Origin: a virus | DNA length: 64,000 nt | Strand: one strand, 5' to 3' | IMG/VR virus record: IMGVR_UViG_3300044614_002073 | Coordinates: 1 to 64,000 of that record | In this document: positions 3,493 through 24,895 of the stretch, piece by piece | How the letters are laid out: the number at the start of each line of letters is the position of its first letter | Numbering within the stretch: position 1 is the stretch's first letter | Position numbers and translations under genes: made by a program | The notes under the pieces: generated by a model | Database searches by the model: none | Seen by the model: the letters and a program-made list of their open reading frames with translations, nothing else | What the model was told of the DNA's origin: nothing

Positions 3493-4239
3493 TTGAGAAA
3501 AAATAATAAAAATGCCAAAAAACGCAAGAATGCTATAGACTTAACTGATTCTCTTTTGGAACCACAAAATCAACCAACTTATGGTTTCAAAAATAGACTT
3601 AAGCCCCGTAGTAAAAATCAACAAGAATACATAAGAACAGCAGCGGAGAACAACATCACTTTATGTCATGGTGTAGCGGGTAGTGGTAAAACACACATCG
3701 CTATAGGTATGGCAATCGAATACTTATTGGACAAGAAAGTACAAAAAATAGTCATCACCAGACCAGTAGTAGAATCCGGAGAAAAAATCGGATATTTACC
3801 TGGAACTGCTGAGGAAAAATTGCATCCTTATTTGTTACCAATATTAGATGAAATTAACTATTTTATATCGTCAGGAGAATATAATTCACACAAAACTAAT
3901 AATCGTATAGAAGTAGTGCCTCTTGGTCTAATGAGAGGTAGAAATTTCCATAATACTTTTATTGTTGCCGATGAATGTCAAAATGCATCTTATGATCAAC
4001 TTAAGATGTTATTAACAAGAATTGGTATGAATAGCAAAATGATCTTGACTGGAGATACATCTCAATCAGATTTAATGAAGAATGCTCGTGGAGGATTTGA
4101 AACTATTACTGATGCTTTAACAGAGTTAGAGGGTGTAGGCATTGCCAAACTTGATTATGGCGATATTGTCAGACATCCGATCATAGAGAAAATTTTAGTG
4201 AGACTAGATAGTTTAGAAAACTATGGAAAGAAAACATAA
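3493..4239 (+). CDS. phoH: PhoH-like P-loop ATPase
   Basis: Belongs to the PhoH family of phage and bacterial NTPases, whose exact role is unsettled (RNA metabolism and phosphate stress are usually cited). Residues about 58-65 form Walker A (GVAGSGKT), followed by TRPVVESGEKIGYLPG, a hallmark of the family, and Walker B in FIVADECQN. TGDTSQSD follows as the sensor-like strand of the fold. The length of 248 residues is the usual core-only phage form; the first 35 residues are Lys/Asn-rich and likely disordered. The start is a TTG at 3493 with AGGGG a few bases upstream. No in-frame ATG lies before the conserved core. It overlaps the next gene by 17 bases, suggesting translational coupling. Confidence 0.93.
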   Translation: MRKNNKNAKKRKNAIDLTDSLLEPQNQPTYGFKNRLKPRSKNQQEYIRTAAENNITLCHGVAGSGKTHIAIGMAIEYLLDKKVQKIVITRPVVESGEKIGYLPGTAEEKLHPYLLPILDEINYFISSGEYNSHKTNNRIEVVPLGLMRGRNFHNTFIVADECQNASYDQLKMLLTRIGMNSKMILTGDTSQSDLMKNARGGFETITDALTELEGVGIAKLDYGDIVRHPIIEKILVRLDSLENYGKKT

Positions 4240-4804
4240 ACGATGCCTAATACTAAATGCTGATTACTCATTATTGACTATTATAGATTGGCAAAAGGCC
4301 ATTATATTATCCATGCGTAATCAGGAGAATAGTAAGAAAGGTATAGAAATACTAGATTTTTACAAAGATGATTATATAGCTGGTATCAACAATAAAAAAT
4401 ACCCTATACCAGCAGTAGCTAAAACTGTTAGGTACTTAAAAGTATTTAATCATCAGGTAAAATTTTCTAGGAAAAATCTATTCATTAGAGATGGATTCAC
4501 TTGCCAATATTGTGGTTGTCGTAAAGACATGGCCGAACTAACATACGACCATGTAATACCTAAATCTTCTTGGTCGAATGACAGAGGATCACCAACTTCT
4601 TGGACTAATATTGTAACAGCATGTATCCCTTGTAATAGAAAAAAAGGAAATAAAACGCCAGCACAAGCTAATATGCCAATAAAGAATTTGCCAATTATTC
4701 CAAAAAGAAATGAAAAATACTTGCCTGTAGCCGCCTACCTTTCTAACATAAAGCACAGTATTCCAGAAGAGTGGATTTACTATATTCCCGGATCATATCA
4801 ATAA
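4223..4804 (+). CDS. HNH endonuclease
   Basis: 193 residues. The N-terminal half (CLILNADYSLLTIIDWQKA) is the leader seen in a widespread bacterial and phage HNH family, and the C-terminal half is the ββα-metal nuclease. CQYCG near residue 93 and CIPCNRKKGNKTP near 132 form the structural zinc site. DHVIPKS near 110 carries the catalytic His, and NIVTACIPCN holds the second HNH strand. Free-standing HNH genes in phages may be homing nucleases or part of DNA packaging and repair; nothing here decides between them. The ATG at 4223 lies inside phoH and has no clear Shine-Dalgarno site, so it probably relies on coupling. It ends by sharing one base with the next start (TAATG). Confidence 0.88.
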   Translation: MERKHKRCLILNADYSLLTIIDWQKAIILSMRNQENSKKGIEILDFYKDDYIAGINNKKYPIPAVAKTVRYLKVFNHQVKFSRKNLFIRDGFTCQYCGCRKDMAELTYDHVIPKSSWSNDRGSPTSWTNIVTACIPCNRKKGNKTPAQANMPIKNLPIIPKRNEKYLPVAAYLSNIKHSIPEEWIYYIPGSYQ

Positions 4805-9002: not shown

Positions 9003-9434
9003 ATGATAACAGACAATATTATAGCATCCTTATCTGATGAAGAAAGAGAATTGCTACTAAAACTATATACTAAGATAGCGGAAAATGAACATAAGCGTCA
9101 CAACAGTGACGATGATATATATTTTGAACCAACAGAGAAAACACCATCTCAAGAGGAAATACTCCAACAAATAGAACATGATTCTATTCATCAATATGAT
9201 GAGATTAAAAATGGTGAAGCGATAATGGACACGCCTGTAGAATTGATCTTTAATGTAAATGGTGTTGTATTTGAAAAAAATACTTTAGGTGAGATTATCA
9301 GACAAAGCGATCTTTTCGTCAAGAGTTATCATGTTCCACTTGTAAACCACAATCAGATTAAAGAATATATAGAAAAGTTTTTCCAAAAATTTGCATCAAC
9401 GCTAGAAGCCACAGCAAAGGAAGTAATTGAGTGA
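9003..9434 (+). CDS. Hypothetical acidic protein upstream of helicase
   Basis: 143 residues, acidic, no recognised domain. A helical N-terminus (SLSDEERELLLKLYTKIAEN) is followed by an acidic linker and a C-terminal portion with VELIFNVNGVVFEK and a long helix ending in ATAKEVIE. The stop overlaps the helicase start as GTGA, so its expression is likely coupled to the helicase. A helicase loader or primosome accessory would fit the position, but nothing in the sequence proves it. Confidence 0.55.
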   Translation: MITDNIIASLSDEERELLLKLYTKIAENEHKRHNSDDDIYFEPTEKTPSQEEILQQIEHDSIHQYDEIKNGEAIMDTPVELIFNVNGVVFEKNTLGEIIRQSDLFVKSYHVPLVNHNQIKEYIEKFFQKFASTLEATAKEVIE

Positions 9435-10897
9435 CAATGATTTTATCGGATCCAGCAGCGGAAAGAGCCGTCTTGGCTGGTGTTTGTGCCTATTCTGATA
9501 AGGCATATTACGAAGTCTCGGATATTTTATCTGAGACTTGTTTCACAATTGATAGCAATGTTATCATCTATAAGTGCTTAAAGCATTTATTTGACAAAGG
9601 ACACTCTACAAATATAGACATAGCATGTATAATGTCCGCTGCTCAAGAATTGGATTTGTCTCATATTCTTTCCAAAAAGGAAGAAGCGCAGCATTTAAAA
9701 GCTATTATTGACTTCCCAGTAAGTCTGGATAACATTAGAAAGTTTGCTGCTAAAGTTAAAAAGCTAGATGTAGCCAGACTATTGCATAAGCAGCTTAAGC
9801 TGGCTCAAGAGAGAATATTAGATATAAATGGATCAGAAAGTATAACGGCAATTTTGGGTATTGCCGAAGATACTGTCTTTGATTTTACCAATAAATTAAA
9901 CGATAGTGAAAGTGGTCCAGAAGCTATCGGTAATAATCTAGAAGAGTACATTCAATATCTAGAAGAACATAAAGTAGACCAAGTTGGCATATCTACAGGA
10001 TTTAACGTTTATGATCAGGCCATCGGTGGAGGATTAAGAAAAAGCACAGTTAATGTGATTGCCGCAAGACCAAAAGTAGGTAAAACTCTTTTATCAGACA
10101 ACATGGGATTTCATATTGCGAGCAAGGGTATACCAGTATTGAACATGGACACCGAAATGACAAAAGAAGATCATTTGCACAGAGTTTTGGCAATGATGAC
10201 CGAATTAGAAATTAATTCTATTGAAACTGGTGCGTTTAGTCAAAATACCGATAAAAAAGCAAAGATTACAGATGCAGTAGAACAACTTAAGAAAACTAAA
10301 TTGTACTACAAATCTATTGCCGGCAAGTCTTTTGAAGAACAATTAGCAATAATGCGTAGATGGGTTATTAGAGAAGTTGGGCTAAACCCAGATGGGTCGG
10401 CCAAAGATTGTGTCATATTTTATGATTATCTTAAACTCATGGATTCAGCAGGCATATCTCAGGACATGAAAGAATATCAAGTCTTAGGCTTCATGATGAC
10501 TTCTCTGCATAATTTTGCAACGAAATACAAGGTACCAATTGTTGCATTCGTTCAGTTAAATAGGGATGGAATTACCAAGGAAAGCACGGACACCGCATCT
10601 GGATCAGATAGAATTATTTGGCTATGCAGCAACTTTACAATCTTTAAGAGGAAAAGCGATGAGGAAATAGCTGAAGATGGTCCGAGCAATGGTAATCGTA
10701 AACTAGTTCCTCTTATTAGCCGACACGGCGGAGGATTAGACGATAATGACTATATCAATTGTCATATGAAAGGTTGGTGTGCCAAGATAACAGAAGGCAA
10801 AACAAGACTAGAACTAATTAATAAAATTGAGAAGAAATCTACAAACGGATTTATTATAGATGAAAACAATGACAATCAAGAAATCAGCTTCGTATAA
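9431..10897 (+). CDS. dnaB: Replicative DnaB-like helicase
   Basis: Hexameric 5'-3' helicase of the phage replisome. 488 residues with the two-domain DnaB layout. The N-terminal domain (SDPAAERAVLAGVCAYSD to about residue 130) is followed by a linker and the RecA-fold motor opened by STGFNVYDQAIGGGLRKS. Walker A ARPKVGKTL lies near residue 210, TEMTKEDHLHRVLAMM near 240, and Walker B VIFYDYLKLMD near 325, then AFVQLNRDG. The start is a GTG overlapping the upstream stop and 7 bases after AAGGAAG; an ATG two codons later is the alternative. The primase gene follows with a 38-base overlap, so the two primosome parts are co-translated. Confidence 0.93.
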   Translation: MTMILSDPAAERAVLAGVCAYSDKAYYEVSDILSETCFTIDSNVIIYKCLKHLFDKGHSTNIDIACIMSAAQELDLSHILSKKEEAQHLKAIIDFPVSLDNIRKFAAKVKKLDVARLLHKQLKLAQERILDINGSESITAILGIAEDTVFDFTNKLNDSESGPEAIGNNLEEYIQYLEEHKVDQVGISTGFNVYDQAIGGGLRKSTVNVIAARPKVGKTLLSDNMGFHIASKGIPVLNMDTEMTKEDHLHRVLAMMTELEINSIETGAFSQNTDKKAKITDAVEQLKKTKLYYKSIAGKSFEEQLAIMRRWVIREVGLNPDGSAKDCVIFYDYLKLMDSAGISQDMKEYQVLGFMMTSLHNFATKYKVPIVAFVQLNRDGITKESTDTASGSDRIIWLCSNFTIFKRKSDEEIAEDGPSNGNRKLVPLISRHGGGLDDNDYINCHMKGWCAKITEGKTRLELINKIEKKSTNGFIIDENNDNQEISFV

Positions 10898-12017
10898 TCA
10901 AAACGAGCTAAAAGCTATTTGTGACCAACTGTGCGACAATATTGAGGTTTTACTTGACTCTTTGGGTGTTGAGTACAAACAAAATCACAAGATGATATCA
11001 ATGTCATGCCCTATCCATGGCGGGGATAATATTTCTGCTTTAAATCTATACCCTGACGGAGACAGATACAGGGGAAATTGGAAATGTCGAACTCATGGAT
11101 GTGAGAATACTTTTAAATCATCTGTTATAGGATTTATTAGAGGGGTATTGTCACACAATGAATTTGGATGGATGAAAGAAGGAGACTCTACCGTATCCTT
11201 CAATGATGCGCTGATCTTTGCTAGAAAAATTCTAAAAGATAACTTTAAAGATATAAAGATATCAAAAACAGCCATAGAAAAAAATAACTTTACGGCATTC
11301 GTATCTAATATATCTCCTAATAGTCAGGACGACATCCCAAAGATATCTCGTCAAAGCATTAGAAAAAGCCTAACGATTCCCGCTCAATATTTTATTGATA
11401 GAGGGTTTCATACCGATATCTTGAATAAATATGATGTTGGTCTATGTGATAAATCAGGAAAAGAAATGTTTGGAAGAGCCGTTGCTCCTATCTACGATAT
11501 AGATCATCAATATATGGTAGGTTGCACAGGACGTAGTATATTCAATAAGTGTGATAAATGTAGTAGTTATCATAATGACACAGAAGCGTGTCCGTCTGAA
11601 GAAAATAGATGGAAATACTCTAAGTGGAAGCATAATTTTGGCTTTAAAACACAAAACCATTTGTATAATCTATGGTATGCTAAAGACTATATTAAAGATA
11701 CCAAAACTATTATTGTTGTAGAGAGTCCTGGCAATGTTTGGAAACTGGAAGAATGTGGGTTCAGAAACAGCGTAGCCATCTTCGGATCTTCTATGTCTGA
11801 TACTCAAAAAATGCTTATTGATTCTAGTGGTGCCATGCAAATGATTCTTTTATTAGATAACGATGAGGCTGGACAAAAGGCCACATCCATTATATCCAAA
11901 AAATGCTCTAGAACATATAATATATATACTCCTGCATTTGTTACCACAGATATTGCTGATATGTCAACAGAGACTATCATAACAGAATTAACCAAATTAA
12001 CTGAAAGATTTATATGA
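10860..12017 (+). CDS. DnaG-like primase (zinc finger plus TOPRIM)
   Basis: 385 residues. The N-terminal zinc-binding part has SCPIHGGDN near residue 49 and WKCRTHGCE near 80. The middle includes a second cysteine cluster (CDKCSSYHNDTEAC) that may bind another zinc. The TOPRIM domain carries VVESPGNVWKLEECG near 286 (catalytic Glu) and LLLDNDEAGQKA near 330 (Asp-x-Asp metal site). It is shorter than bacterial DnaG (about 580) and lacks the C-terminal helicase-binding domain, which is usual in phage primases. The gene overlaps the helicase by 38 bases; a Met three codons in (10869) is an equally possible start. Confidence 0.88.
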   Translation: MKTMTIKKSASYNQNELKAICDQLCDNIEVLLDSLGVEYKQNHKMISMSCPIHGGDNISALNLYPDGDRYRGNWKCRTHGCENTFKSSVIGFIRGVLSHNEFGWMKEGDSTVSFNDALIFARKILKDNFKDIKISKTAIEKNNFTAFVSNISPNSQDDIPKISRQSIRKSLTIPAQYFIDRGFHTDILNKYDVGLCDKSGKEMFGRAVAPIYDIDHQYMVGCTGRSIFNKCDKCSSYHNDTEACPSEENRWKYSKWKHNFGFKTQNHLYNLWYAKDYIKDTKTIIVVESPGNVWKLEECGFRNSVAIFGSSMSDTQKMLIDSSGAMQMILLLDNDEAGQKATSIISKKCSRTYNIYTPAFVTTDIADMSTETIITELTKLTERFI

Positions 12018-12762: not shown

Positions 12763-13803
12763 ATCATTACTTATTTTCGTAGTTCGTCTTATAATGCGCA
12801 CTCTATGTGCGAACAGCAATACTTTTTAGAATATGTATTGGGGTGGAGAGGTCCGTCTGGACAAAAGGCAGATAAGGGGACTATAGTACATAAAGTGCTA
12901 GAGATATTAGCAGTTATTAAACAAGCACAACAGAATAAAAACGATACCATAACAGACGATCTACTTGGTAATATATCTACTAAAAAATATGATTTGGAAG
13001 AAATTATCAGACAAGTATACGATTATTACATTAATAAATGTCAACACCATAAGTGGTCAACTAAAGATTTTGACGACTGTAGAAAATGGGTATACAAGGC
13101 TATAGAATATAATAACGGAATGTTTGATCCTAGAAATAGGACTATACTCTGTCCAGAGCAGCATTTTGATATCGCTATTAATAAAAAGTGGGCTAAGTAC
13201 AATTACTTGATAGACGGTAAAAATATTGAAGGAACGCTGGGCCTCAAGGGCACTATTGATCTGATAACAAAAGTAGATGATAAAACACTAGAAATAGTAG
13301 ACTGGAAAACAGGACGCAGGCTAGATTGGGCTACTGGTCAAGAAAAGACTCAAGAAAAACTTGAAAATGATCCCCAGCTAAGAATATATCATTATGCTGC
13401 ACAACAATTATATCCTGAATATGATCATATCATTGTTACTATTTTCTTTATAAATGATGGTGGACCATTCAGTATTCTATTTGATAAATCAGATTTGGCA
13501 CAAACAGAAACAATGTTAAAAAATAAGTTTGAAACAATAAAAAATACTCGTAAGCCACTCTTGAAAAAAAGCTGGATGTGTAGTAAACTGTGTCACTTCG
13601 GCAAAACTACTTTTGAAAATACTCATATTCATCCGCTAGAAGAATATAGAGACAATCAAACATGCTCTAAAAATACAGTCATGACTAAATGCGAACAAGT
13701 AAAACACGACATAGAGCTTAAGGGCATGGACATAGTAGTGGAAGAATATTCAGCACCAGGACATTCTATAGGTCATTATAAAGCCCCAGGAAGTACAGAA
13801 TAA
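12760..13803 (+). CDS. RecB/Cas4-type PD-(D/E)XK exonuclease
   Basis: About 347 residues if started at the ATT at 12760. The frame upstream of the first ATG (12805) encodes ITYFRSSSYNAHS, the S-x-S-x...C leader that precedes CEQQYFLEYVLGW in RecB-family nucleases, so an ATG start would remove conserved sequence. Nuclease motifs are GTIVHKVLE (His), GTIDLI (Asp) and LEIVDWKTGR (Asp, Lys). The C-terminus has CSKLCHFGK and later NQTCSKN; with the early Cys these could bind an iron-sulfur cluster as in Cas4/AddB, though the spacing is not canonical. Likely role: DNA end processing for recombination or host DNA degradation. It follows the dNMP kinase and directly precedes the polymerase. Confidence 0.8.
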   Translation: MIITYFRSSSYNAHSMCEQQYFLEYVLGWRGPSGQKADKGTIVHKVLEILAVIKQAQQNKNDTITDDLLGNISTKKYDLEEIIRQVYDYYINKCQHHKWSTKDFDDCRKWVYKAIEYNNGMFDPRNRTILCPEQHFDIAINKKWAKYNYLIDGKNIEGTLGLKGTIDLITKVDDKTLEIVDWKTGRRLDWATGQEKTQEKLENDPQLRIYHYAAQQLYPEYDHIIVTIFFINDGGPFSILFDKSDLAQTETMLKNKFETIKNTRKPLLKKSWMCSKLCHFGKTTFENTHIHPLEEYRDNQTCSKNTVMTKCEQVKHDIELKGMDIVVEEYSAPGHSIGHYKAPGSTE

Positions 13804-13804
13804 T

Positions 13805-15679
13805 ATGAAGAGTTATGTTCCCTTACACGTTCACAGTCACTATAGTCTGTTAGACGGTCTGTCTAAACCAGATCAAATAGCTCAAAGATGTTTGAACATA
13901 GGAGCAACATCATGTGCTCTTACTGATCATGGATCTATATCTGGTGCTGTTGCTTTTTATCAGTCAATGAAAAAGAGCAATATTAAGCCAATTTTAGGAT
14001 GCGAATTGTATATTTGTCAAGACTTATCAACGAATCAAAGCAAAGAAAATGGCTCTTTATCGCATATGCTGGTTTTGGCCAAAAACCAGACAGGATGGAA
14101 AAACCTCATCAGTTTAGTTTCTGCATCCAACGACCCCAGCCGCTTTTATCGCAAGCCCAGGACCAGCATTAATGAGCTTGAGGAGATGGATACGTCGGGC
14201 TTGATCTGTATTACTGGACACTTAGGATCAAACTTGGCCAATACGATTGATAATGGCTCAGATTTGAGTACAGCCTCAAACCTAATTGAACAGTTAAAGT
14301 CTATTTTTGGTAATCAAAATGTATTCCTAGAAGCCCAATTAATGGACAAAAACCACATACCATTTCAGATTACCTTAACAGATATTGTGCGTAATTTGGC
14401 TAAAAAACATAATCTAAAAGTTATAGCAACTCCTGATGCTCACTATGCTAATAAAGAGGATGCTATAGATCAAAGAGTCCTGTTATGCAACACACTAAAG
14501 ACTACATTTCCAGACATCAATAAGAAGCTACTCAATAATGAAGATGTAGCACTTGGCTGTTTTTTCAAGTCTGATAATTTTTATATCTTATCAGATGAAG
14601 AAATGAGACACCTACATACTGAAGAAGAATTATATAATACAAGACTAGTATCAGATATGTGCGAAGACTATAACATTCTTAATAGGCCACAACTGCCTCG
14701 CTTTATAGACAATGAAGACGAGTATCTGAGACAATTATGTAGAGAGGGCTGGAGAAAGAGAGGTTTTACAAAGATACCAGAATCCGAGCAACAAATTTAT
14801 ATAGATCGCATTAAACAAGAGCTTTCTGTATTACAGGGTGCTGGATTATCTGGATATTTTTTGATTGTACAAGACATCGTGAATTATATTAGAACAAATA
14901 ATTGGCTACCTGGTCCTGGACGTGGATCTGCTGCTGGGTGTTTGGTTTCTTATTTATTGGAAATCACTAATATTGATCCAATCAAATATGATTTACTATT
15001 TGAAAGATTCTACAATGCTGGTCGTAACAGCGCAGATAGAATTTCTATGCCAGATATTGATATTGATGTACCAATGACAGCTAGAGATAATGTAATCGGA
15101 TATATCAAAAATAAGTATGGCGCAAACAAGGTTTCTCAAATGATTACCTTTAATACGATGAAAGGTAGAGGAGCTTTAAAAGAAGTTCTAAGAGTTTATG
15201 GCGGTTTGACATACGAGGAAATGAATCAGATTACCAAGCATATACCTGATGAAGCTAAAATTGCAGATGATCTTCAAGAAATGAAAGACGATAGAGGAGA
15301 ATCATCCATTATACAATGGTCATTGGAAAATATGCCAGAGAAATTTAAAGAATGGTGCAAGATAGAGGAAGACGGATCAATAACAGGACTATTTGCAAAA
15401 AGATTTGAGCAGGCTATCCGTTTAGAGGGTACAAAATCAAACCAATCTAAACACGCGGCAGGCATCGCTATTTCGGCCCATAATTTGGACGGTATGTGTC
15501 CTATGGTGTATGATTCTAAGACAGGTAATAGCATTGCTGGTATGGAAATGCAAGATTTAGAATCTCTTGGAATTGTTAAATTTGATATATTAGGTATTGG
15601 TATGTTAGACAAAATTATGTGTATTCAATCTCTTTTAAAGGGTAAAAATTATGCCGGAATATCAAACAACATTTGCTAA
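13805..15679 (+). CDS. dnaE: DNA polymerase III alpha subunit, N-terminal half (PHP plus palm)
   Basis: 624 residues covering the PHP domain and the catalytic palm of a C-family polymerase. PHP motifs include HVHSHYSLLDG (residues 8-18), LTDHGSISG and PDAHYA. The palm has PGPGRGSAAGCLVSYLLE near 368 and MPDIDIDVP near 415, supplying the catalytic Asp residues, then KHAAGIAIS. The protein stops after VKFDILGIGMLDKIM plus about 18 residues, exactly where an intact DnaE continues toward the IPLDD...FQLESRG region. That continuation is a separate gene at 19014. The two products sum to 1164 residues, matching a full-length DnaE. No intein sequence ends this half. Product assembly in trans is inferred. 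Confidence 0.93.
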   Translation: MKSYVPLHVHSHYSLLDGLSKPDQIAQRCLNIGATSCALTDHGSISGAVAFYQSMKKSNIKPILGCELYICQDLSTNQSKENGSLSHMLVLAKNQTGWKNLISLVSASNDPSRFYRKPRTSINELEEMDTSGLICITGHLGSNLANTIDNGSDLSTASNLIEQLKSIFGNQNVFLEAQLMDKNHIPFQITLTDIVRNLAKKHNLKVIATPDAHYANKEDAIDQRVLLCNTLKTTFPDINKKLLNNEDVALGCFFKSDNFYILSDEEMRHLHTEEELYNTRLVSDMCEDYNILNRPQLPRFIDNEDEYLRQLCREGWRKRGFTKIPESEQQIYIDRIKQELSVLQGAGLSGYFLIVQDIVNYIRTNNWLPGPGRGSAAGCLVSYLLEITNIDPIKYDLLFERFYNAGRNSADRISMPDIDIDVPMTARDNVIGYIKNKYGANKVSQMITFNTMKGRGALKEVLRVYGGLTYEEMNQITKHIPDEAKIADDLQEMKDDRGESSIIQWSLENMPEKFKEWCKIEEDGSITGLFAKRFEQAIRLEGTKSNQSKHAAGIAISAHNLDGMCPMVYDSKTGNSIAGMEMQDLESLGIVKFDILGIGMLDKIMCIQSLLKGKNYAGISNNIC

Positions 15680-15833
15680 TATTGCAACGGACACCGTATT
15701 TGTTTATAATAATGTAGAGTATAGGAAGATGCCTGAGGTTAGGGTATCTTGCTGTCGTAAACTTAATGCTGTCGTAGTAAGTACTGGCGAACAAACCTTC
15801 ATCCAAGATAATGCTACTATTACAGTAAAATAA
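15651..15833 (+). CDS. Small protein with CC-x-x-NA motif
   Basis: 60 residues, overlapping the end of the polymerase N-half by 29 bases, with AAAGGGT at a suitable distance before the ATG. The sequence TTFANIATDTVFVYNNVEY, then RKMPEVRVSCC and RKLNAVVV, looks like a small β-barrel-like phage domain (F-x-x-I/L-x-x-x-D/G-x-x-F...Y-x-K...CC-x-x-NA). The same arrangement recurs inside the next gene's product near residues 190-232 (TFDQLYVGDYFTLYE ... IYKKV ... CCTFNAI), suggesting a free and a fused copy of one domain. The function is unknown. Confidence 0.6.
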   Translation: MPEYQTTFANIATDTVFVYNNVEYRKMPEVRVSCCRKLNAVVVSTGEQTFIQDNATITVK

Positions 15834-15859
15834 TTGCCTAATAGACATAGCAGGACATA

Positions 15860-18322
15860 ATGGGACATATACTAGAATTAGATAGTGGAAATCTATACTC
15901 AACCGGAGACAACCAATACGGACAGTTGGGCATAGGCAATACTGACGATACTCCACTAAGATTTAAAGTATTAACCGGTATAGAACAGTATGATAATATC
16001 CCATGGATAGATGCTAAGGTAGGCCAAAACCATTCTATAGCCATCAAACAGGATAAGAGCATATGGATGTGGGGCTCTAATATTGAAGGTCAAATGGGAC
16101 TACCTCAAGATATCAAATACTTGACCAGTCCAACCAAAAAAGATTTTCCTATTAATCCAGACAAAGATATAGATATTAATATAGGATTATATTTTACTAT
16201 TATATCCCAAACCAATGAAAAATCTTATGCTGTAGGAACATTTCAAAATTTAGGTTCGCAATTTGTATCTATTAATAGGGAAATAGTACCCCTATACTTG
16301 AGAGATCCACAAGGAGAATCTTTTATAAGTGTTGATGCTGGACCAAAAACTATTATCGCTAGAATTGGTAGCGGTAGTCAGGTTTTTTCCGATTGGTCGG
16401 GGGACTTAATAGAAAGAGATTTTATAACATTTGACCAACTATATGTTGGAGACTATTTTACTCTTTATGAACCATTTAATCGCGAGAGATTAATTTACAA
16501 AAAAGTTGATAAATATCAACAAGAAGCAGGATGCTGTACTTTTAATGCTATCTGTATGCATAGAAAATACAGAGAGCTTATTAGTCAAGTGGAAGCGGTT
16601 TATCCGGAAACCAAAGTTTTTGTTCTTAGTGATCTGTTATCAGAGGAAAACAGACCCAAAATAGTTTCAGCACAAGATCAATATAATGTAGATTTTGTTT
16701 TCTATTCAGCTTTAGCTGGTATAGACTATATGTCTGGTGCATATCCAAATAAGATTGATCCGTTCACTTTAAAAGGATTGTTTTTAGCTACTGGCACTAA
16801 AAACTTATTGGACGTCATATTGTTTGGAGGATTGCATTTTACAGATAATCCACAAGATCAGTACAATACCAAAACTATTGTTGAAAAAATTAACGCTAAA
16901 GAAGTTTTCCAAAAAGGTAGTTTTCCAGAATACTTCGAAGAAGTAGGTGGATATAAGATATTACCTGGAGATAGTTACACTTTACATCCAGAATTTGTTA
17001 ACGATTATTATCGAGCCCAGCCACTATATTATTTCAAAATTAATGGAAATAAAGAACCAAGAAAATATATTACTGCTAATAGATACAATTTACCATATAC
17101 TGGATTGTCTAAATCTTATTATGAATTAGAATCTGAGGATAATCTATTTGATTTATTTTTTAATCGCAGTAACGGTTTCTTTTATAATAAGGTTAATCCC
17201 CAAGATCCAACAGATCCAATTATAACGAGAGAAGCAGTTGATCTGCCAGCAGATGAAAACAATAGAGTAACCGTTGAGGATTTATTTTATACTCCTCCAT
17301 ACTTGTTAAAGTATGAATTATCACAAGGTAAAAGTAGTTTTTCTCAAAATTTTGTCGATCCATATGTAAGAGTCCAAGCTCAACAGCCAGAAGACCCCGT
17401 ATTGGATTGTGGAGCTTATACGGCTGGAGCACAAGCTATTCCTGGTGAGCAAACAGATTGGCTATATGCTTGCTATGCTAGGGCAGACAATAATACTGCT
17501 GCTGGAAGAAGATATATCACATACAATATCGGACCTTATGCCGATACGCTTATAAAATACTTTTTAGATCCAAAAACTGATCCAGAGTTAACAAAACAAT
17601 TATTTGGTTTTACAAAAATAGAATTAGAAGAACTGTATGATGCCATTAGAAATGGTAAGCCAGACACTAGCAATAACCCAGCAGATGCTCAAAAATATGA
17701 AAAAGTTACTGGTGATTCTTTTAGAATGCTAAGGGATGTATTCAATACACAATTTCAAGGGAAAATATACATCGATGCTAAAACTAATAAGCCAATTATT
17801 AGGACATCGGCAAATACTCTCTCTACTATGCCATATAGTGAAATGATTAACGGTCTCATTACATATACATCTAGAGGGCCAGTTTATTATCATCACTACA
17901 TTAAGATACCAAATAGAATTATTTGTTATACGTATTTTACTAAAACTTTAACCACGGACGGCGATAGGTCAGTCTATAGATATGAGTCTGACAGACAAAC
18001 ATTAATAGTGCCTATAGATGTAACAGGGAAAATTGTTCCCGGCACAACCACTATACGTTATTGGGTCAGAAATCCGACATCAACAGATACTGAAGATAAA
18101 CTGTCTCAGCAAGCTCTTTCTATTCGCATAGTATCTGTAACCTACGACAAAGAGCTGAATATAACAAAACTAAGGCTAGACAAACCCATGACAGCCCCTT
18201 ACCTTATAGGATGTACCAGAGTTCCTGATCCTAGATATGGTGTGGTTTGCGGACCAAGATTGTATATAGACATTGATTACAACGGTTATTCTTTTGACAT
18301 GATTGAAGCATTACAAAGCTAA
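15860..18322 (+). CDS. 820-residue virion-like protein with RCC1 repeats, located between polymerase halves
   Basis: The N-terminus contains RCC1-type repeats: STGDNQYGQLGIGN near residue 15 and MWGSNIEGQMGLPQ near 70, with the intervening AKVGQNHSIAIKQDKSIWMW strand pattern. Around 190-232 sits a copy of the small domain encoded by the preceding gene. The remaining 580 residues are β-rich with many Tyr, Asn and Asp, and no enzyme motif (for example NGFFYNKVNPQDPTDPIITR, RRYITYNIGPYADTLIKYF). The end, near 780, has GCTRVPDPRYGVVCGPRLY. Composition and RCC1 content match the late virion proteins at 47-55 kb, not replication factors, so a structural or adhesion role is inferred. Its location inside the replicase operon is odd. 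The stop is 8 bases from the exonuclease start. Confidence 0.7.
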   Translation: MGHILELDSGNLYSTGDNQYGQLGIGNTDDTPLRFKVLTGIEQYDNIPWIDAKVGQNHSIAIKQDKSIWMWGSNIEGQMGLPQDIKYLTSPTKKDFPINPDKDIDINIGLYFTIISQTNEKSYAVGTFQNLGSQFVSINREIVPLYLRDPQGESFISVDAGPKTIIARIGSGSQVFSDWSGDLIERDFITFDQLYVGDYFTLYEPFNRERLIYKKVDKYQQEAGCCTFNAICMHRKYRELISQVEAVYPETKVFVLSDLLSEENRPKIVSAQDQYNVDFVFYSALAGIDYMSGAYPNKIDPFTLKGLFLATGTKNLLDVILFGGLHFTDNPQDQYNTKTIVEKINAKEVFQKGSFPEYFEEVGGYKILPGDSYTLHPEFVNDYYRAQPLYYFKINGNKEPRKYITANRYNLPYTGLSKSYYELESEDNLFDLFFNRSNGFFYNKVNPQDPTDPIITREAVDLPADENNRVTVEDLFYTPPYLLKYELSQGKSSFSQNFVDPYVRVQAQQPEDPVLDCGAYTAGAQAIPGEQTDWLYACYARADNNTAAGRRYITYNIGPYADTLIKYFLDPKTDPELTKQLFGFTKIELEELYDAIRNGKPDTSNNPADAQKYEKVTGDSFRMLRDVFNTQFQGKIYIDAKTNKPIIRTSANTLSTMPYSEMINGLITYTSRGPVYYHHYIKIPNRIICYTYFTKTLTTDGDRSVYRYESDRQTLIVPIDVTGKIVPGTTTIRYWVRNPTSTDTEDKLSQQALSIRIVSVTYDKELNITKLRLDKPMTAPYLIGCTRVPDPRYGVVCGPRLYIDIDYNGYSFDMIEALQS

Positions 18323-18330
18323 GGATAAAA

Positions 18331-19017
18331 ATGAAAAATAAAATTTGTGTTTTTGATTTTGAGACTGATGGTATCGATACCGGCACCTGTAGTCCAGTAC
18401 AAATAGCAGCAGTAATAGTTGACCCATATAATTTATCCATTATGAAAGATTCAGAGTTTAATATTACAGTTAGGCCGGAAAAACTAGAAATAGATAAGGA
18501 CTACAAATATGATGACTCAGACATATTGGATTTTCATGCAAAAGTAAGGGGTTGTTCCAAAGAAGATATACTAAAATCTTGGCAGGAAGCAATGTCTCAA
18601 CAACAGGCATGGTCTATGTTTTCTCAATACTTGGAAATTTACCATCTAAACAGAAGCAAAAAAAGTATGTTTTCGGCTCCTGTAGCCGCTGGGTATAATA
18701 TACTCAGGTTTGATATGAAAATTGTAGAAAGATTTAGTCGTAAACTTGGATATGTTAATAATGAAAATACATCAAGTTTATTTTTCCCAAGAGATACTTT
18801 AGATATAATGAATTTATTATTCTACTGGTTTGAAAGTAATGACGATGTAAAAAATCTAACATTAGACAATATAAGAGACTATATGGGTATAGACAAGACC
18901 AACGCTCACGATGCTCTGAAAGATGTTAGAGATTGTGCAGAATTACTTATTCGATTTTTAAGACTGCATAGGAATTTATCCAAAAAAATTAAATTTAGGG
19001 ACTCATTTGTTTCATGA
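18331..19017 (+). CDS. dnaQ: DEDDh 3'-5' proofreading exonuclease (DnaQ-like)
   Basis: 228 residues. The DEDDh catalytic set is complete: FDFETDG (D9, E11), GYNILRFDMK (Asp near 130) and HDALKDVRD (His and Asp near 193-198). PRDTLDIMNLLFYW lies between the second and third motifs, and YMGIDKTNAHD before the last. It most likely acts as the epsilon-type proofreader of the split alpha subunit, as it overlaps the C-terminal half gene by 4 bases (ATGA). It lacks an obvious clamp-binding motif. A general DNA or RNA 3' exonuclease is the alternative, but the context favours proofreading. Confidence 0.88.
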   Translation: MKNKICVFDFETDGIDTGTCSPVQIAAVIVDPYNLSIMKDSEFNITVRPEKLEIDKDYKYDDSDILDFHAKVRGCSKEDILKSWQEAMSQQQAWSMFSQYLEIYHLNRSKKSMFSAPVAAGYNILRFDMKIVERFSRKLGYVNNENTSSLFFPRDTLDIMNLLFYWFESNDDVKNLTLDNIRDYMGIDKTNAHDALKDVRDCAELLIRFLRLHRNLSKKIKFRDSFVS

Positions 19018-20636
19018 CTAGATATTATCAATTTGATTGCGGTTGTAAGTTTCCAGTATTAGAATCAGACGAGCAACTTGACTTTGACATCAATAATATT
19101 CCTTTGGATTGTGATAAAACATGGAATTTAATCTCTGATGGCAATACCAAGGGATGTTTCCAGTTAGAGTCTAGATTGGGCCAATCAATGGCTAAAAAAC
19201 TTAAACCAGAGAATATAGAGCAGCTAGCAGGTCTTATCAGCATTATGCGACCCGGTTGCTTAGAAGCCATTAGAGAGGGTAAAAGTGTTAGTAACCATTT
19301 TATAGATAGAAAAAATGGTAAAGAAAGTATAGACTATTATAATCCAAATCTCAAAAGCATATTAGAGACAACATATGGAGAAATGGTTTATCAAGAACAG
19401 TCTATGCAAATAGCACAAGAGTTAGCCGGATTTGATTTGCAAGAAGCCGATATGTTACGCAAGGCCATCGGTAAAAAGAAGCCAGAAGAAATGGCAAAGT
19501 TGAGAACGGTGTTCATCAATGGCTGTAAAAACAAAAACATAGTCAATGAAGATGAAGCAGAAGAGATCTTCGGTTGGATCGAAAAAAGTCAAAGATATTC
19601 ATTCAACAAAAGCCATGCCGTTAGTTATGCAATTAATGGCTATTTGTCTGCATATGCAAAAGCCCATTTCCCACAGATATTTTTTGTATCATATTTGCGT
19701 TTTGCAAAAGACAAGATAGATCCTCATCAAGAAATCAAAGAATTAATACATAATGCTAATTCTATGAATATTGATGTACTGTTGCCTAGATTTAAATTTA
19801 TGAATAAAGAATTTGAGATTATTAATGATCAAATATATTTTGGAATAACTAATATTAAGGGTGTTGGGGAATCGGTATATGAATCTATTAATAAACTTAG
19901 ACTAGATTTAGCGAATAAAAATATTACCGGAATCATTCCCATTTTTTGCAGAGTTTTGGCTAATGTTAACAGTGCAGCGGCTAAGGCTATCATATCTGTT
20001 GGAGCATTTGATGAATATTCTATTCCTAGAACAGAATTATTATTTTATTTGGACATGCTGAATAAATTAACTAAAAAAGAACTAGAACAAATATCCTTAC
20101 TTAATATTGATATTGCAAGTATAAAATTTAGAGACGTTTTTATTAGCTTATTAAGCAAAGGCAAGGTTACAAAAAAACGCCAAATAGTCATTCAAGAATT
20201 TATTAACAGTATTGATAGGCCTCCCTATTCCTTAAAGGACAATATGCATTGGATAGCAGAAACCGAAGCGGCTTTGCTCGGCATACCACTAACTTGCACC
20301 AAAACAGACTCTTATATGCAAAATTATGAGTCTAACTTAATAACATGTAAAGAGTTTCAAAATGTTGATAGTGGTAAAAAAATTGCTATCATGGGAGAAA
20401 TTAGTAGACTTAGCACCATTAAAACAAAACAGGGTAAAAACAAAGGTGCTAACATGTCTTTCTTAGAGATATTCGATAGTTCTGGTATCTTGGATTCGGT
20501 GGTCGTATTTCCAGAACAATATATGCAATTTAAGGATATCCTGAAAGAAAACGAAGTTCTGGTGTTTATTGGAACCAAATCAAAAAAATCCGGCAGTGGC
20601 CTGATCGTAGAAAAATGTTTTGTTCCAGAGTCTTGA
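19014..20636 (+). CDS. dnaE: DNA polymerase III alpha subunit, C-terminal half
   Basis: 540 residues continuing the fold missing from the gene ending at 15679. A short Cys-containing leader (YYQFDCGCKFP) precedes INNIPLDCDKTWNLI, TKGCFQLESRLGQSMAKKL, ALISIMRPG-type sequence, YQEQSMQIAQELAGF, MLRKAIGKKKPEEMAKLR, SFNKSHAVSYAINGY and GITNIKGVGE, all conserved blocks of the fingers and tandem HhH region. The last 100 residues form an OB-fold (KIAIMGEISRLSTIKTKQGK onward). The leader is not part of ordinary DnaE and may be an interaction surface for the N-half. No intein C-terminal His-Asn is seen. Its stop codon lies inside the -35 of the ssb promoter. Confidence 0.93.
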   Translation: MTRYYQFDCGCKFPVLESDEQLDFDINNIPLDCDKTWNLISDGNTKGCFQLESRLGQSMAKKLKPENIEQLAGLISIMRPGCLEAIREGKSVSNHFIDRKNGKESIDYYNPNLKSILETTYGEMVYQEQSMQIAQELAGFDLQEADMLRKAIGKKKPEEMAKLRTVFINGCKNKNIVNEDEAEEIFGWIEKSQRYSFNKSHAVSYAINGYLSAYAKAHFPQIFFVSYLRFAKDKIDPHQEIKELIHNANSMNIDVLLPRFKFMNKEFEIINDQIYFGITNIKGVGESVYESINKLRLDLANKNITGIIPIFCRVLANVNSAAAKAIISVGAFDEYSIPRTELLFYLDMLNKLTKKELEQISLLNIDIASIKFRDVFISLLSKGKVTKKRQIVIQEFINSIDRPPYSLKDNMHWIAETEAALLGIPLTCTKTDSYMQNYESNLITCKEFQNVDSGKKIAIMGEISRLSTIKTKQGKNKGANMSFLEIFDSSGILDSVVVFPEQYMQFKDILKENEVLVFIGTKSKKSGSGLIVEKCFVPES

Positions 20637-20710: not shown

Positions 20711-21094
20711 ATGAATATTGTAATCTTGCGTGGAAATTTAACAAGAGACCCTGAGTTAAGGCACATCACAGCCTCTGATAAAAAGACAGCAGTTGTTAAC
20801 TTTACTGTTGCTGTATCTAGAGAATTTAACAGGGCAAATGGAAGCAAGGACAAGGTAACATCTTTCATCTCTTGTGAAGCATGGGACAGTGGTGCAGAAA
20901 CTATTGCAGCTTCCTTCCAGAAGGGAGATCTTGTACTAGTTGAAGGTACTCTTAGGAATGATTCTTGGGAGAAGGACGGCGTTAAGCACAGTACTCTAAA
21001 GGTTAGAGTAAATAACTTTTCCAAGATTACAAAGATTTCTAAAAAGGCAGCAGCAGGAGTTTCATCGGAGGAAGAGGAAACGGTTGCCTTCTGA
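20711..21094 (+). CDS. ssb: Single-stranded DNA-binding protein
   Basis: 127 residues with the bacterial SSB OB-fold: MNIVILRGNLTRDPELRHI, VVNFTVAVSREFNR, SFISCEAWDSGAETIAASF, KGDLVLVEGTLRNDSWEKDG and LKVRVNNFSKI. The acidic C-terminus (SSEEEETVAF) is the usual protein-docking tail, ending in Phe. It coats ssDNA at the phage fork and recruits partners such as primase or recombinase. It has its own promoter, a good ribosome site and a following hairpin, so it is a separately transcribed gene, consistent with high demand for the protein. Confidence 0.95.
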   Translation: MNIVILRGNLTRDPELRHITASDKKTAVVNFTVAVSREFNRANGSKDKVTSFISCEAWDSGAETIAASFQKGDLVLVEGTLRNDSWEKDGVKHSTLKVRVNNFSKITKISKKAAAGVSSEEEETVAF

Positions 21095-21165: not shown

Positions 21166-22833
21166 ATGTCTAAACCAAAAATTCTAATGTGTTCAGAGGC
21201 TAGTTTTTTGCACTCTGGATATAGTACGTATGCCAAAGAACTATTAAATAGGCTCTATAAATCTGGCAAATATGAAATAGCTGAATTTGCCTCATATGGG
21301 ATATTAGGAGATCCAAGAGACCGAGATATACCTTGGACATATTACCCAAATGCGGTAAAAGAAAACGATCCAAGATTTGGTGAATACAATAATTCTGGAG
21401 AAAACGCTTTCGGTAAATGGCGATTCGAAAGAGTTGTTTTAGATTTCATGCCAGATATAGTATTCGATATTAGAGATTTTTGGATGAACTCTTATCAAAA
21501 ATTCTCTGTTCTTAGACAGTTTTATAATTGGGTTGTGATGCCCACAGTAGATTCCAGACCTCAGCAAGAAGAATGGCTAGATGTTTATATGGACGCCGAT
21601 GCTGTTCTATCATATTCTGATTGGGGCGGTCAGGTTTTACAAGATCAAACAAACAACAAAATAAAATATGCAGGATCGGCCTCTCCTGCTGTAGATTTAG
21701 ATGTTTTCAAGCCTATGGACATGAAAGAAGCCAGATCTCAATTGCGTATTCCAGAATCAATGAAAATTATTGGTTCAGTAATGCGAAACCAAAAAAGAAA
21801 ATTGATTCCAGAATTAATGCAGTCTGTTAGGGGTCTGCTGGACCAATTCGAATTGCAAAACAAAGAGTTGGGACAGGATGTTTATCTATATTTGCACACT
21901 AGTTATCCAGATGCTGGGTGGAACCTACCAAATCTACTCAAAGAACATAGCATGGGTAAAAGAGTTTTGTTTACATATGTATGCAAAAATTGTGGTAAAA
22001 TACATGCACATACTTTTAATCATTCCATTAAAAACTGTCCTCATTGTGGTCAAAAAACTGCTGTGTTTCCGTCAGTATCCGAGGGTGTTTCTACACAGCA
22101 GCTAAGTTCGATATACAATTCTTTTGATATTTATGTTCAATATGCTATATGCGAAGGCTTTGGAATGCCACAAGTCGAGGCTGGCGCCTGTGGGGTTCCT
22201 ATAGTCTCCATAGATTACAGTGCCATGTCGGATATCGTTAGACTATTAGATGGATATATCGTACAGCCTCAAACTTTTTTTAAAGAATTAGAAACAGAAG
22301 CATATAGAGTTTATCCAAATAACGATCAACTAATATACCATCTATGGACCTTCTTCAATCTGTCGAAAGAAGAACAATTGCAAAAAAGAGAAAAGGTTAG
22401 AGAGCTAACAGAAACTCATTTCAATTGGGATGCAACTGCCAATAAGTGGATGAAAGTTTTTGATGAAATTTTAGCCAATCCTCATAGAAAACACTGGTCA
22501 AATATACCTCCAAATTATTTAGCAAAATTAGATATAAATGAATTCAGAAATTTCAATAAATCTTATGAAGCATTCCAATATATTTGTTGTGACAGAATGG
22601 GCTCACCACAGCTACTAAATAATATGATGGGTCTTAATCTACTAAAATACAGTGATTATGGCTATATATCTAATGGTATGAACATTAAGAAATTTAATTT
22701 TCAAAATCTTGTTGAGGTTTATAACAAGTATATGGAAAATCAAAATCTAGTTAAGTACGCCATTGCCAATTCTCATGTTCTTAATGGCGAAGATTATATT
22801 AGGTATGCACACGAGAGACAGGCGAATAAATGA
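21166..22833 (+). CDS. GT4-like glycosyltransferase with inserted zinc ribbon
   Basis: 555 residues, GT-B fold. The N-terminal domain opens with KILMCSEASFLHSGYSTYAK. The C-terminal nucleotide-sugar domain begins around IIGSVMRNQKRK and has EGFGMPQVEAGACGVP, the E-x7-E donor-binding motif of GT4. Between these, near residues 267-300, lies a zinc ribbon (CKNCGKIHAHTF ... KNCPHCGQ) inserted in a loop. The last 130 residues are extra to the fold. It probably transfers a sugar to a phage-chosen acceptor (DNA base, virion protein or host surface); the acceptor is unknown. It overlaps the next gene by 4 bases and heads the sugar island. The ATG is behind GGAAG. Confidence 0.85.
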   Translation: MSKPKILMCSEASFLHSGYSTYAKELLNRLYKSGKYEIAEFASYGILGDPRDRDIPWTYYPNAVKENDPRFGEYNNSGENAFGKWRFERVVLDFMPDIVFDIRDFWMNSYQKFSVLRQFYNWVVMPTVDSRPQQEEWLDVYMDADAVLSYSDWGGQVLQDQTNNKIKYAGSASPAVDLDVFKPMDMKEARSQLRIPESMKIIGSVMRNQKRKLIPELMQSVRGLLDQFELQNKELGQDVYLYLHTSYPDAGWNLPNLLKEHSMGKRVLFTYVCKNCGKIHAHTFNHSIKNCPHCGQKTAVFPSVSEGVSTQQLSSIYNSFDIYVQYAICEGFGMPQVEAGACGVPIVSIDYSAMSDIVRLLDGYIVQPQTFFKELETEAYRVYPNNDQLIYHLWTFFNLSKEEQLQKREKVRELTETHFNWDATANKWMKVFDEILANPHRKHWSNIPPNYLAKLDINEFRNFNKSYEAFQYICCDRMGSPQLLNNMMGLNLLKYSDYGYISNGMNIKKFNFQNLVEVYNKYMENQNLVKYAIANSHVLNGEDYIRYAHERQANK

Positions 22834-23993
22834 AAAATATCCTATATGTTGCCCCTTATAAACAAAACGATGGATGGGGAGAAGCATCAAAACAATATCT
22901 AAAGTCTATAGCTTATTGCTGTGAAAAATTAGGATATGACTTACAAGCAAAACCTATTTTTCTTTCTCATAATGTAGATTTTACTCCTGATCCAATCATT
23001 AGTCAATACGAAAACAATCATCTATCACATATTGATGTTGTTATACAAAAAGCATTGCCTCAAGCTATAGCTCCAATTTATCCATACAAAAATATAGCAA
23101 TGTCCGTATTTGAGCAAACAAATCTGGACCATGTTTCTATTATAAGACAAGTTTTTAATCGAATGGATGCCGTGCTGGTCCCTTCTGCATTAGAACAACA
23201 AACCATAGCCGGTATGATTAATAAACCAGTATATGGCATATCTCAACCAATTGATATCCAAGAAATCAGAAGTATAGAAACTGAAATTGAAAATAATCAA
23301 ATGGATATATTGTCTTTACATTCAAGATATAAAGACTTTGTTAAGTTTTATTTTGTAGGATCTTTCGTTCCTAGAAAAAATATTGTTAATCTAATTTTAG
23401 CTTTTAATTATGAGTTTGCACAAAACGAAAAGGCTTTGCTTGTTATCAAAACAGATAAGTTAGACAACAACAGCAGAGAACTAATGATTAAAGGAATTAG
23501 AGAAACGATAGAAAGAAATAAATATCTTAATAAGCTTACCAAAAACTTAATTTTAATTACTGATCATTTGGATAGGCAAAATCTGTTAAGATTGCATAAT
23601 GCTTGTGATATATTTGTTTGTCCATCAAAGGGAGAAGCATTTTGTAGACCATTAGCGGAATCTATTTGCATGGGTAGTACTCCTATTGCTGTTGAGCATA
23701 CTGGTGCCGCAGAGTTAATTGATTCCAAGATTGGAGGTTTGATTATTCCTTCAAGATTAGAAATGGCAGAATCGAATCCCAGCAATAAATTTTTGGAACA
23801 CGAATCAGAGATAGAATACTCTAGCGAGCCAACCCTGTTAGATATAAGAAAAACTCTTAGAAAAGCATATGATAATCACATAGATATGAATGACACAAAG
23901 AAGAAAGACTTACGACAGAGATTAAAACTTTATAGCGATAGATTTTCTGTACAGTCTATAGGAGAAAAAATATGTTCTTTGGATATAATGTAG
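22830..23993 (+). CDS. Second GT-B glycosyltransferase
   Basis: 387 residues. NILYVAPYKQNDGWGEASKQ opens the N-terminal Rossmann domain. The C-terminal domain starts with FYFVGSFVPRKNIVNLILAF and contains VCPSKGEAFCRPLAESICMG, a GT4-like donor site (first Glu in KGEAF, second in LAES), then VEHTGAAELI. It lacks the zinc ribbon and long tail of its upstream neighbour. Donor and acceptor are unknown. It overlaps the upstream gene (ATGA) and the next by 22 bases, so the two transferases are made together. Confidence 0.83.
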   Translation: MKNILYVAPYKQNDGWGEASKQYLKSIAYCCEKLGYDLQAKPIFLSHNVDFTPDPIISQYENNHLSHIDVVIQKALPQAIAPIYPYKNIAMSVFEQTNLDHVSIIRQVFNRMDAVLVPSALEQQTIAGMINKPVYGISQPIDIQEIRSIETEIENNQMDILSLHSRYKDFVKFYFVGSFVPRKNIVNLILAFNYEFAQNEKALLVIKTDKLDNNSRELMIKGIRETIERNKYLNKLTKNLILITDHLDRQNLLRLHNACDIFVCPSKGEAFCRPLAESICMGSTPIAVEHTGAAELIDSKIGGLIIPSRLEMAESNPSNKFLEHESEIEYSSEPTLLDIRKTLRKAYDNHIDMNDTKKKDLRQRLKLYSDRFSVQSIGEKICSLDIM

Positions 23994-24895
23994 GATCAAC
24001 AATACACAGAGCTGTAGAAGATCAAATAAATATTATATATGAGCCTATAAATCCTATTGTGGATAATTTTATTGCAAATTTATGGGGCGGCTGTGAAAAT
24101 GTTAATATTGTGACTGGCCCATCGGAGACTGCTGTCAGGCCAGATAACATGATGGTAGTAAAGCAGGTCGATGCTCCTCCTATATATTATGATTGTTGGC
24201 TAAAATCTCCAGACAATCAATACGAACAAATAAACTTTATGCATCTCCCAGAAATAATGCATATTGTTAATCCATTGTCAATGGACCGTAATGCCTATCA
24301 CAAACATAGACACATGACATTTGTCTGTTATGAAGAAAACACTTATAGGTATTTGGTCCAAGAGCTTGGGATACAGAGATGCGCAATGATAAATCCTGTC
24401 ATTAATCCTAGTTTTTTGATGAACAATACATCTGAAAAGCTTAAATCAGTAGACCTCACAATTCTGCAAAACAATTATGATCTTGACAGAATACAGCAAA
24501 TTGTTAATACAATACAGACATCAATACCTTCATTAAAAATTCAAATAGCTTCATCTAATGCTACTAATGATTATATCATTAAGATTTTGACAGAGAGTAA
24601 GATGGTTTTTTCTATAGATGCAATATCTATTATAGAAAGTAAATACGCTATTAGTTTTCAAACTCTGTTATTGGGTGGAGACAGTAGAAACATTAGTTAC
24701 CCTGGTTTAGTTTATCAAACCCCTACCATTGAAGACATGGTTAAAACTATAGAGTCTATAATGTCTGACTACAGTGGTCAATTTAATAAGCTAACATTGG
24801 AAAAAAACAAATTGTTATTAGATTCAGATATTAAGAAAACACAAGAATCAATACAAGATATATTAAATACAATTTTACAGAAGGTTTCAGCATGA
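23972..24895 (+). CDS. Hypothetical sugar-island protein, possibly degenerate GT-B
   Basis: 307 residues, no firm family. The N-terminal half contains ENVNIVTGPSETAVRPDNMM and a segment rich in His/Met (FMHLPEIMHIVNPLS, YHKHRHMTFVCYEENTYR). The C-terminal half (IQIASSNATNDYIIKIL, MVFSIDAISIIESKYAISFQ, TLLLGG) resembles the β-α-β pattern of the donor domain of GT-B enzymes, without a clear E-x7-E. It may be a diverged transferase or a partner of the two upstream enzymes. It overlaps both neighbours. Confidence 0.5.
   Translation: MFFGYNVGSTIHRAVEDQINIIYEPINPIVDNFIANLWGGCENVNIVTGPSETAVRPDNMMVVKQVDAPPIYYDCWLKSPDNQYEQINFMHLPEIMHIVNPLSMDRNAYHKHRHMTFVCYEENTYRYLVQELGIQRCAMINPVINPSFLMNNTSEKLKSVDLTILQNNYDLDRIQQIVNTIQTSIPSLKIQIASSNATNDYIIKILTESKMVFSIDAISIIESKYAISFQTLLLGGDSRNISYPGLVYQTPTIEDMVKTIESIMSDYSGQFNKLTLEKNKLLLDSDIKKTQESIQDILNTILQKVSA

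What the first reader, a model, noticed from the sequence alone, without database searches (positions are those of the whole stretch)
13805..20636. DNA polymerase III alpha encoded in two genes 3.3 kb apart
The gene at 13805-15679 ends just after the palm (FDILGIGMLDKIM), and the gene at 19014-20636 resumes at IPLD...FQLESR and runs to the OB fold. The two add up to 1164 residues, the size of one DnaE. The break is between palm and fingers, not at the known cyanobacterial split-intein site (before the FNKSHS block), and neither half carries intein-like sequence. The halves must therefore associate without splicing. The second half has an extra Cys-containing leader (YYQFDCGCKFP) that could form the interface. 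Break and gene content suggest stepwise insertion into an ancestral intact gene.
Basis: partly seen in the sequence, partly recalled or inferred. Interest (0 to 1): 0.78.

Follow-up and report, generated by a model that had tools for sequence, protein, structure and literature searches.

The report
Two-chain split phage DNA polymerase III
A large group of uncultured phages makes its main DNA-copying enzyme as two separate protein chains, cut at the hinge between the palm and fingers domains with no splicing system to join them, so the two chains almost certainly work together as a lasting two-part enzyme.

Summary
DnaE is split between palm (DnaE-N, 13805-15679) and fingers (DnaE-C, 19014-20636), in the linker matching E. 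coli alpha residues 566-582. It is no local accident: 110 fetched loci (90 distinct sequences) carry the same break and form one well-supported clade whose sister is intact phage DnaE. The content of the gap varies from nothing to 5 kb, yet the break stays put. In most lineages a DEDDh exonuclease gene lies between the halves; in the window it overlaps the DnaE-C start. Catalytic residues are essentially invariant, and contigs of 197-244 kb show no other DNA polymerase. No intein or intron was found at the break, although true inteins interrupt this polymerase elsewhere in two relatives. Two other lineages (phage phiT1, locus L178) split independently at the same hinge. The window's RCC1-repeat gene is a late insertion shared only with its nearest relatives. 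A conserved ~60-aa protein, predicted SH3-like, follows DnaE-N and may be a third subunit. Physical association of the halves is inferred, not shown. Closest precedent: the minimal split Pol III of group 2.2 jumbo phages (PMC7824862), which differs in domain content and companion polymerase.

The parts
13805..15679 (+). DnaE-N: PHP + thumb + palm half of Pol III alpha, with the complete catalytic Asp triad (D417, D419, D594)
   Evidence: Pfam PF02811, PF07733; aligns to E. coli alpha 6-565; triad invariant 89/89
15651..15833 (+). conserved 60-aa small protein with VSCC motif, predicted SH3-like barrel; overlaps the DnaE-N stop
   Evidence: present between the halves across the subclade; AF2 pLDDT 90; weak eIF5A/EF-P N-domain match
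15860..18322 (+). 820-aa RCC1-repeat protein, late insertion in the gap
   Evidence: RCC1; only in window and L001-L006; repeats resemble the phage's own minus-strand ORFs with virion-type domains
18331..19017 (+). DnaQ-like DEDDh 3'-5' exonuclease, likely proofreading subunit
   Evidence: RNase_T, phrog_192; D9 E11 D128 H193 D198 invariant 86/86
19014..20636 (+). DnaE-C: fingers + HhH + OB half of Pol III alpha; start overlaps the exonuclease stop by 4 bp
   Evidence: PF17657, PF14579; aligns to E. coli alpha from 583; AF2 pLDDT 90.6 and PDB Pol III alpha match E 2.3e-24
20711..21094 (+). SSB, conserved neighbour
   Evidence: PF00436; same position in relatives
12805..13803 (+). PD-(D/E)XK nuclease, conserved upstream neighbour
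   Evidence: PF12705; same position in relatives
9431..10897 (+). DnaB-like helicase of the same replication cluster
   Evidence: PF03796, phrog_19
10860..12017 (+). DnaG-like primase of the same replication cluster
   Evidence: Toprim, phrog_47

Best explanation
The phage replicase is a bacterial-type Pol III alpha (DnaE) permanently made as two polypeptides. Shown: DnaE-N carries PHP, thumb and palm with the complete catalytic triad, DnaE-C carries fingers, HhH and OB fold, and the break lies in the palm-fingers linker with no intein or intron found. Inferred: the two chains are made from one operon, fold separately and dock through the normal palm-fingers contact to rebuild the active site around DNA. 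The exonuclease encoded between them joins as the proofreading subunit, as epsilon does in bacteria, and the small SH3-like protein may be a further subunit or assembly factor. The split arose once in the ancestor of a large phage clade and has been kept, while other genes came and went in the gap; the RCC1 gene of this window is one of the latest arrivals.
For: Same break in 110 loci, 90 distinct sequences, one clade with SH-aLRT 100 and intact sister. Gap content changes completely while the break stays fixed. Palm triad, fingers motifs and exonuclease DEDDh essentially invariant; pN 0.09-0.15 against pS 0.64-0.85 in nearest relatives. Palm and fingers families on separate ORFs and no PolA or PolB in twelve related records, several of 197-244 kb. 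No intein motif or intron at the break, while true inteins are readily seen elsewhere in L125 and L164. DnaE-C folds alone and matches Pol III alpha. Independent splits at the same linker in phiT1 and L178.
Against: No direct evidence of a complex: two-chain prediction was not possible and no biochemistry exists. The large records are linear, of unstated completeness, so another polymerase could be missed. N-C distance correlation (0.95) is no higher than that of either half with the exonuclease, so it does not single out a physical pair. Nothing shows how the hinge is held without the covalent linker.
Confidence: 0.86

Rival explanations
1. The halves are joined after all, by a split intein or by RNA trans-splicing, giving a normal single-chain DnaE.
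For: DnaE is the classic split-intein host, and inteins do occur in this clade: a split intein in DnaE-N of L125 and an HNH intein in DnaE-C of L164. Some loci have HNH genes in the gap (L157; likely L146).
Against: DnaE-N ends 19-37 residues after the palm Asp, no DnaE-C leader has HN[CST], and Rfam finds no intron. Where inteins exist they are obvious.
Confidence: 0.03
2. The two products are separate enzymes, for example a PHP/palm nuclease and a DNA-binding fingers protein, and do not form a polymerase. The host Pol III or an unseen phage polymerase copies the DNA.
For: The PHP metal ligands are largely kept, so DnaE-N could be a nuclease; DnaE-C folds well alone.
Against: The catalytic triad and the fingers motifs are both kept invariant, which a lone nuclease or binder would not need. 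The halves always occur together with helicase, primase, SSB and exonuclease genes in the loci seen, and no other polymerase was found.
Confidence: 0.07
3. The gene is a decaying remnant in this genome, broken by insertion of the RCC1 and exonuclease genes.
For: L003 has an in-frame stop in DnaE-N and L108 a break in frame, so damage or error occurs in single contigs.
Against: Strong constraint on both halves over a diverse clade; the break long predates the RCC1 insertion.
Confidence: 0.02
4. The split is an assembly or sequencing artefact of this contig.
For: None beyond the general risk of metagenome assembly.
Against: About 110 loci from many independent samples share it.
Confidence: 0.01

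Closest known systems
Minimal split Pol III alpha of group 2.2 jumbo phages (Iyer et al. 2021, PMC7824862)
   Same: Phage Pol III alpha encoded as two proteins expected to rebuild one enzyme without splicing
   Different: That version has only the catalytic core, accompanies a family B polymerase and divides NTP-binding from Mg/template-binding parts in distant genes. Here the domains PHP, HhH and OB are kept, no PolB was found and all three catalytic Asp are in one half
Cyanobacterial split DnaE (split intein; noted in PMC3919608)
   Same: DnaE encoded by two separate genes
   Different: Intein-joined into one chain and broken before FNKSHS; here no intein and a break about 170 residues earlier
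Bacterial DnaE/epsilon core (E. coli Pol III alpha-epsilon)
   Same: Same domain order, palm triad, fingers motifs, and a DEDDh exonuclease partner
   Different: Alpha in two chains; no beta-clamp domain found in the phage records; no tau-binding C-terminal region matched
Rossellomorea phage phiT1 gp20/gp19/gp18 (PV767480)
   Same: Break in the same palm-fingers linker with a small ORF between the halves
   Different: Separate lineage by AU test (p 3.6e-5); its gp19 shows no visible VSCC motif and no exonuclease lies in the gap; annotated only as two Pol III alpha subunits
Split phage PolA or PolB genes (MEP401, PMC10580990; MIJ3, PMC6892783)
   Same: Phage replicase encoded by two ORFs, in MEP401 with a small ORF between
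   Different: Other polymerase families; an intron (MEP401) or intein (MIJ3) is invoked there

Membership tests
DnaE-type Pol III alpha (C family) | PHP domain, palm Asp triad, fingers, HhH, OB fold in DnaE order | tested here: met
   Pfam and PDB alignments; distributed over two ORFs; OB match weak
DnaE-type Pol III alpha (C family) | single continuous chain | tested here: not met
   two ORFs 3.3 kb apart; same in the clade
DnaE-type Pol III alpha (C family) | polymerase activity of the product | not testable with these tools
   needs biochemistry
Split-intein DnaE | IntN/IntC sequence at the break | tested here: not met
   positive contrast in L125
Minimal split Pol III alpha of group 2.2 jumbo phages | core only, without PHP/HhH/OB | tested here: not met
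   PHP and HHH_6 present
Minimal split Pol III alpha of group 2.2 jumbo phages | accompanies a family B polymerase | tested here: not met
   no PF00136 match in 13 records; records may be incomplete
Intron-interrupted polymerase gene | group I/II intron at the break | tested here: not met
   no Rfam match
DnaQ/epsilon-type proofreader | DEDDh exonuclease residues | tested here: met
   86/86
DnaQ/epsilon-type proofreader | binds the PHP domain of alpha | not testable with these tools
   needs complex prediction or pull-down

The most novel reading that the evidence does not exclude
These phages use an obligate multi-chain Pol III core, made of palm chain, fingers chain, exonuclease and a small SH3-like subunit encoded at the break, in which the small protein helps to hold or regulate the palm-fingers hinge; and that hinge is a repeatable break point at which Pol III became two-chain at least three times.
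Probability: 0.25. Interest if true: 0.82.

Novelty: new variant of a known kind. Interest (0 to 1): 0.62.

Why it matters
A replicase that is cut at its palm-fingers joint and stays cut over a diverse clade is a natural test of how palm and fingers cooperate, and a ready-made split polymerase for engineering. The order of steps from intact gene to multi-gene locus can be read from living relatives. It also shows that annotation will report two partial polymerases where there is most likely one enzyme.

Tried and rejected
Intron at the break: no Rfam match. Intein at the break: no motif, while true inteins were found elsewhere in L125 and L164. Cys leader as universal interface or zinc site: missing in 12 of 91 by the script, one of them (L164) a mis-picked start. 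Scan for phiT1-like relatives in IMG/VR with phiT1 gp20 gave none. Small protein against Pfam, PHROGs and NCBIfam: nothing confident; its PDB matches are weak. N-C distance correlation as a test of association: not specific. dN/dS for L003 DnaE-N (1.08) was discarded because an in-frame stop shifted the codon alignment. The AU test on the full 69-row tree did not finish and was replaced by a 28-row tree; L168 was not AU-tested. Literature searches found no description of this clade; subscription papers and most preprints are not covered.

Full report
The observation. Two ORFs at 13805-15679 (624 aa) and 19014-20636 (540 aa) together encode one DnaE. The first holds PHP and the Pol III alpha palm/thumb region, the second the fingers, HhH and OB fold. 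By alignment to solved E. coli alpha, DnaE-N covers residues 6-565 and DnaE-C begins at 583, so the break falls in the linker 566-582. The window is part of a 74.5-kb IMG/VR virus record.

The gap. The 3.3 kb between the halves holds three genes: a 60-aa ORF overlapping the end of DnaE-N (15651-15833), an 820-aa RCC1-repeat protein (15860-18322), and a DnaQ-like exonuclease (18331-19017) whose stop overlaps the DnaE-C start by 4 bp.

Relatives. IMG/VR scans with each half and with a DnaE-C alignment, plus one scan of GTDB genomes, brought in loci from 87% down to 26% identity. All loci of the window's clade in which both halves could be read are split at the same place: 110 loci, 90 distinct DnaE-N sequences; some loci are overlapping fetches of one contig. 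The usual order is PD-(D/E)XK, DnaE-N, 60-aa gene, exonuclease, DnaE-C, SSB. The RCC1 gene occurs only in the window and L001-L006. Deeper relatives lack the 60-aa gene or have a distant version, and carry other genes in the gap: UDG (L129, L130, L141), GroES-like (L144), an HNH gene (L157; likely also L146), a glycosyltransferase-like gene (L149), or almost nothing (L134, L150). In L154, L156 and L164 the halves lie 1-5 kb apart with other genes between them, macro-domain and UDG-like in L154 and a run of others in L156 and L164. A break that stays fixed while its surroundings are replaced is what two independently functional chains would give.

Phylogeny. In a 69-row tree these split sequences form one clade of 46 rows (SH-aLRT 100), next to intact phage DnaEs L158, L159 and L161-L163. 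Rossellomorea phage phiT1 (gp20/gp19/gp18) and L178 are split at the same linker but are rejected as members of the clade (AU p 3.6e-5 and 0.0012). L168 is a further candidate, on a long branch. The L178 split is a bare stop/start overlap and could in principle be a sequencing error; phiT1 has a 49-aa gene in the gap and is a deposited complete genome. Other annotated phages have DnaE broken elsewhere (Onyinye, Jayan, KLEB27-3).

Function. The palm Asp triad, all in DnaE-N, is invariant in 89 of 89. The fingers motifs YQEQ, RKAIGKK and FNKSH are nearly invariant. The exonuclease DEDDh residues are invariant in 86 of 86. PHP metal ligands are kept in 74-86 of 90 (the alignment of ligands to the nine canonical positions was made by motif). 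Among the nearest relatives pN is 0.08-0.15 against pS 0.64-0.85 over the two halves and the exonuclease (dS near saturation, and the L003 DnaE-N row is invalid because of an in-frame stop). The window's record and twelve related ones (37-244 kb, six of them 197-244 kb plus one of 206 kb with two split copies counted among these) contain the palm and fingers families on separate ORFs and no PolA or PolB. No beta-clamp domain was found, so the host clamp may be used. AF2 folds DnaE-C alone with pLDDT 90.6 and pTM 0.83, and it matches Pol III alpha with E 2.3e-24.

No splicing. DnaE-N ends 19-37 residues after the palm Asp in the 84 sequences measured, and no DnaE-C leader has an intein C-terminal motif. 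Rfam finds no intron in the window region or in eight other loci. Inteins do exist in this clade and are easily seen: L125 has a split intein in DnaE-N at GPGRG/SAAG, and L164 has an HNH intein in DnaE-C after RPGPLE.

The small protein. It is conserved across the subclade with invariant S-C-C in the 18 aligned. AF2 gives a small five-strand fold with pLDDT 90, and the best PDB matches are eIF5A and EF-P, whose N domains are SH3-like, weakly (E 0.009). A small SH3-fold gene next to the PolB of group 1 jumbo phages has also been proposed as a possible polymerase subunit (PMC7824862). A role here is a lead, not a result.

Comparison. The closest published case is the minimal split Pol III alpha of group 2.2 jumbo phages (PMC7824862), which lacks the other domains and accompanies a PolB. 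Cyanobacterial split DnaE is intein-based (PMC3919608) and breaks elsewhere. Split phage PolA and PolB are known (PMC10580990, PMC6892783). I therefore rate this a new variant of a known kind: an intein-free, domain-boundary split of a DnaE that appears to be the only replicase of its phages. Limits: association of the halves is inferred; the large records are linear and of unstated completeness; hosts are only hinted at by two short MAG contigs labelled Chitinophagia and Flavobacteriales.

Noticed in passing
L125:5900-6400: A split intein inside DnaE-N at GPGRG/SAAG (IntN ends 6196, IntC starts 6284), so this polymerase is encoded in three pieces.
   Followed up: partly
L164:6975-8000: An in-frame HNH intein in DnaE-C after RPGPLE.
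   Followed up: partly
L003:2782-2850: An in-frame stop codon near the start of the PHP domain of DnaE-N (HVHS*RSHYS) in a 238-kb contig; error or real unknown.
   Followed up: no
L108:3205-4933: DnaE-N is broken within the palm into 430-aa and 168-aa ORFs; possible frameshift error or further split.
   Followed up: no
record of L143 (206 kb), near 53 kb and 199 kb: Two split DnaE copies in one virus record.
   Followed up: no
window 47331-55120, minus strand: Large ORFs with RCC1 repeats, one also with virion-type domains (phrog_613, phrog_25852); the RCC1 gene in the gap shares the repeat, so it may be a virion-type gene moved into the replication cluster.
   Followed up: partly
window 21166-24895: ORFs after SSB that read like glycosyltransferases (by eye, not searched).
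   Followed up: no
window 4223-4804: HNH endonuclease gene next to a PhoH-like gene.
   Followed up: no
L051:10769-11784 and L056: Two ORFs inserted between exonuclease and DnaE-C; the one searched (191 aa) has no Pfam match.
   Followed up: partly
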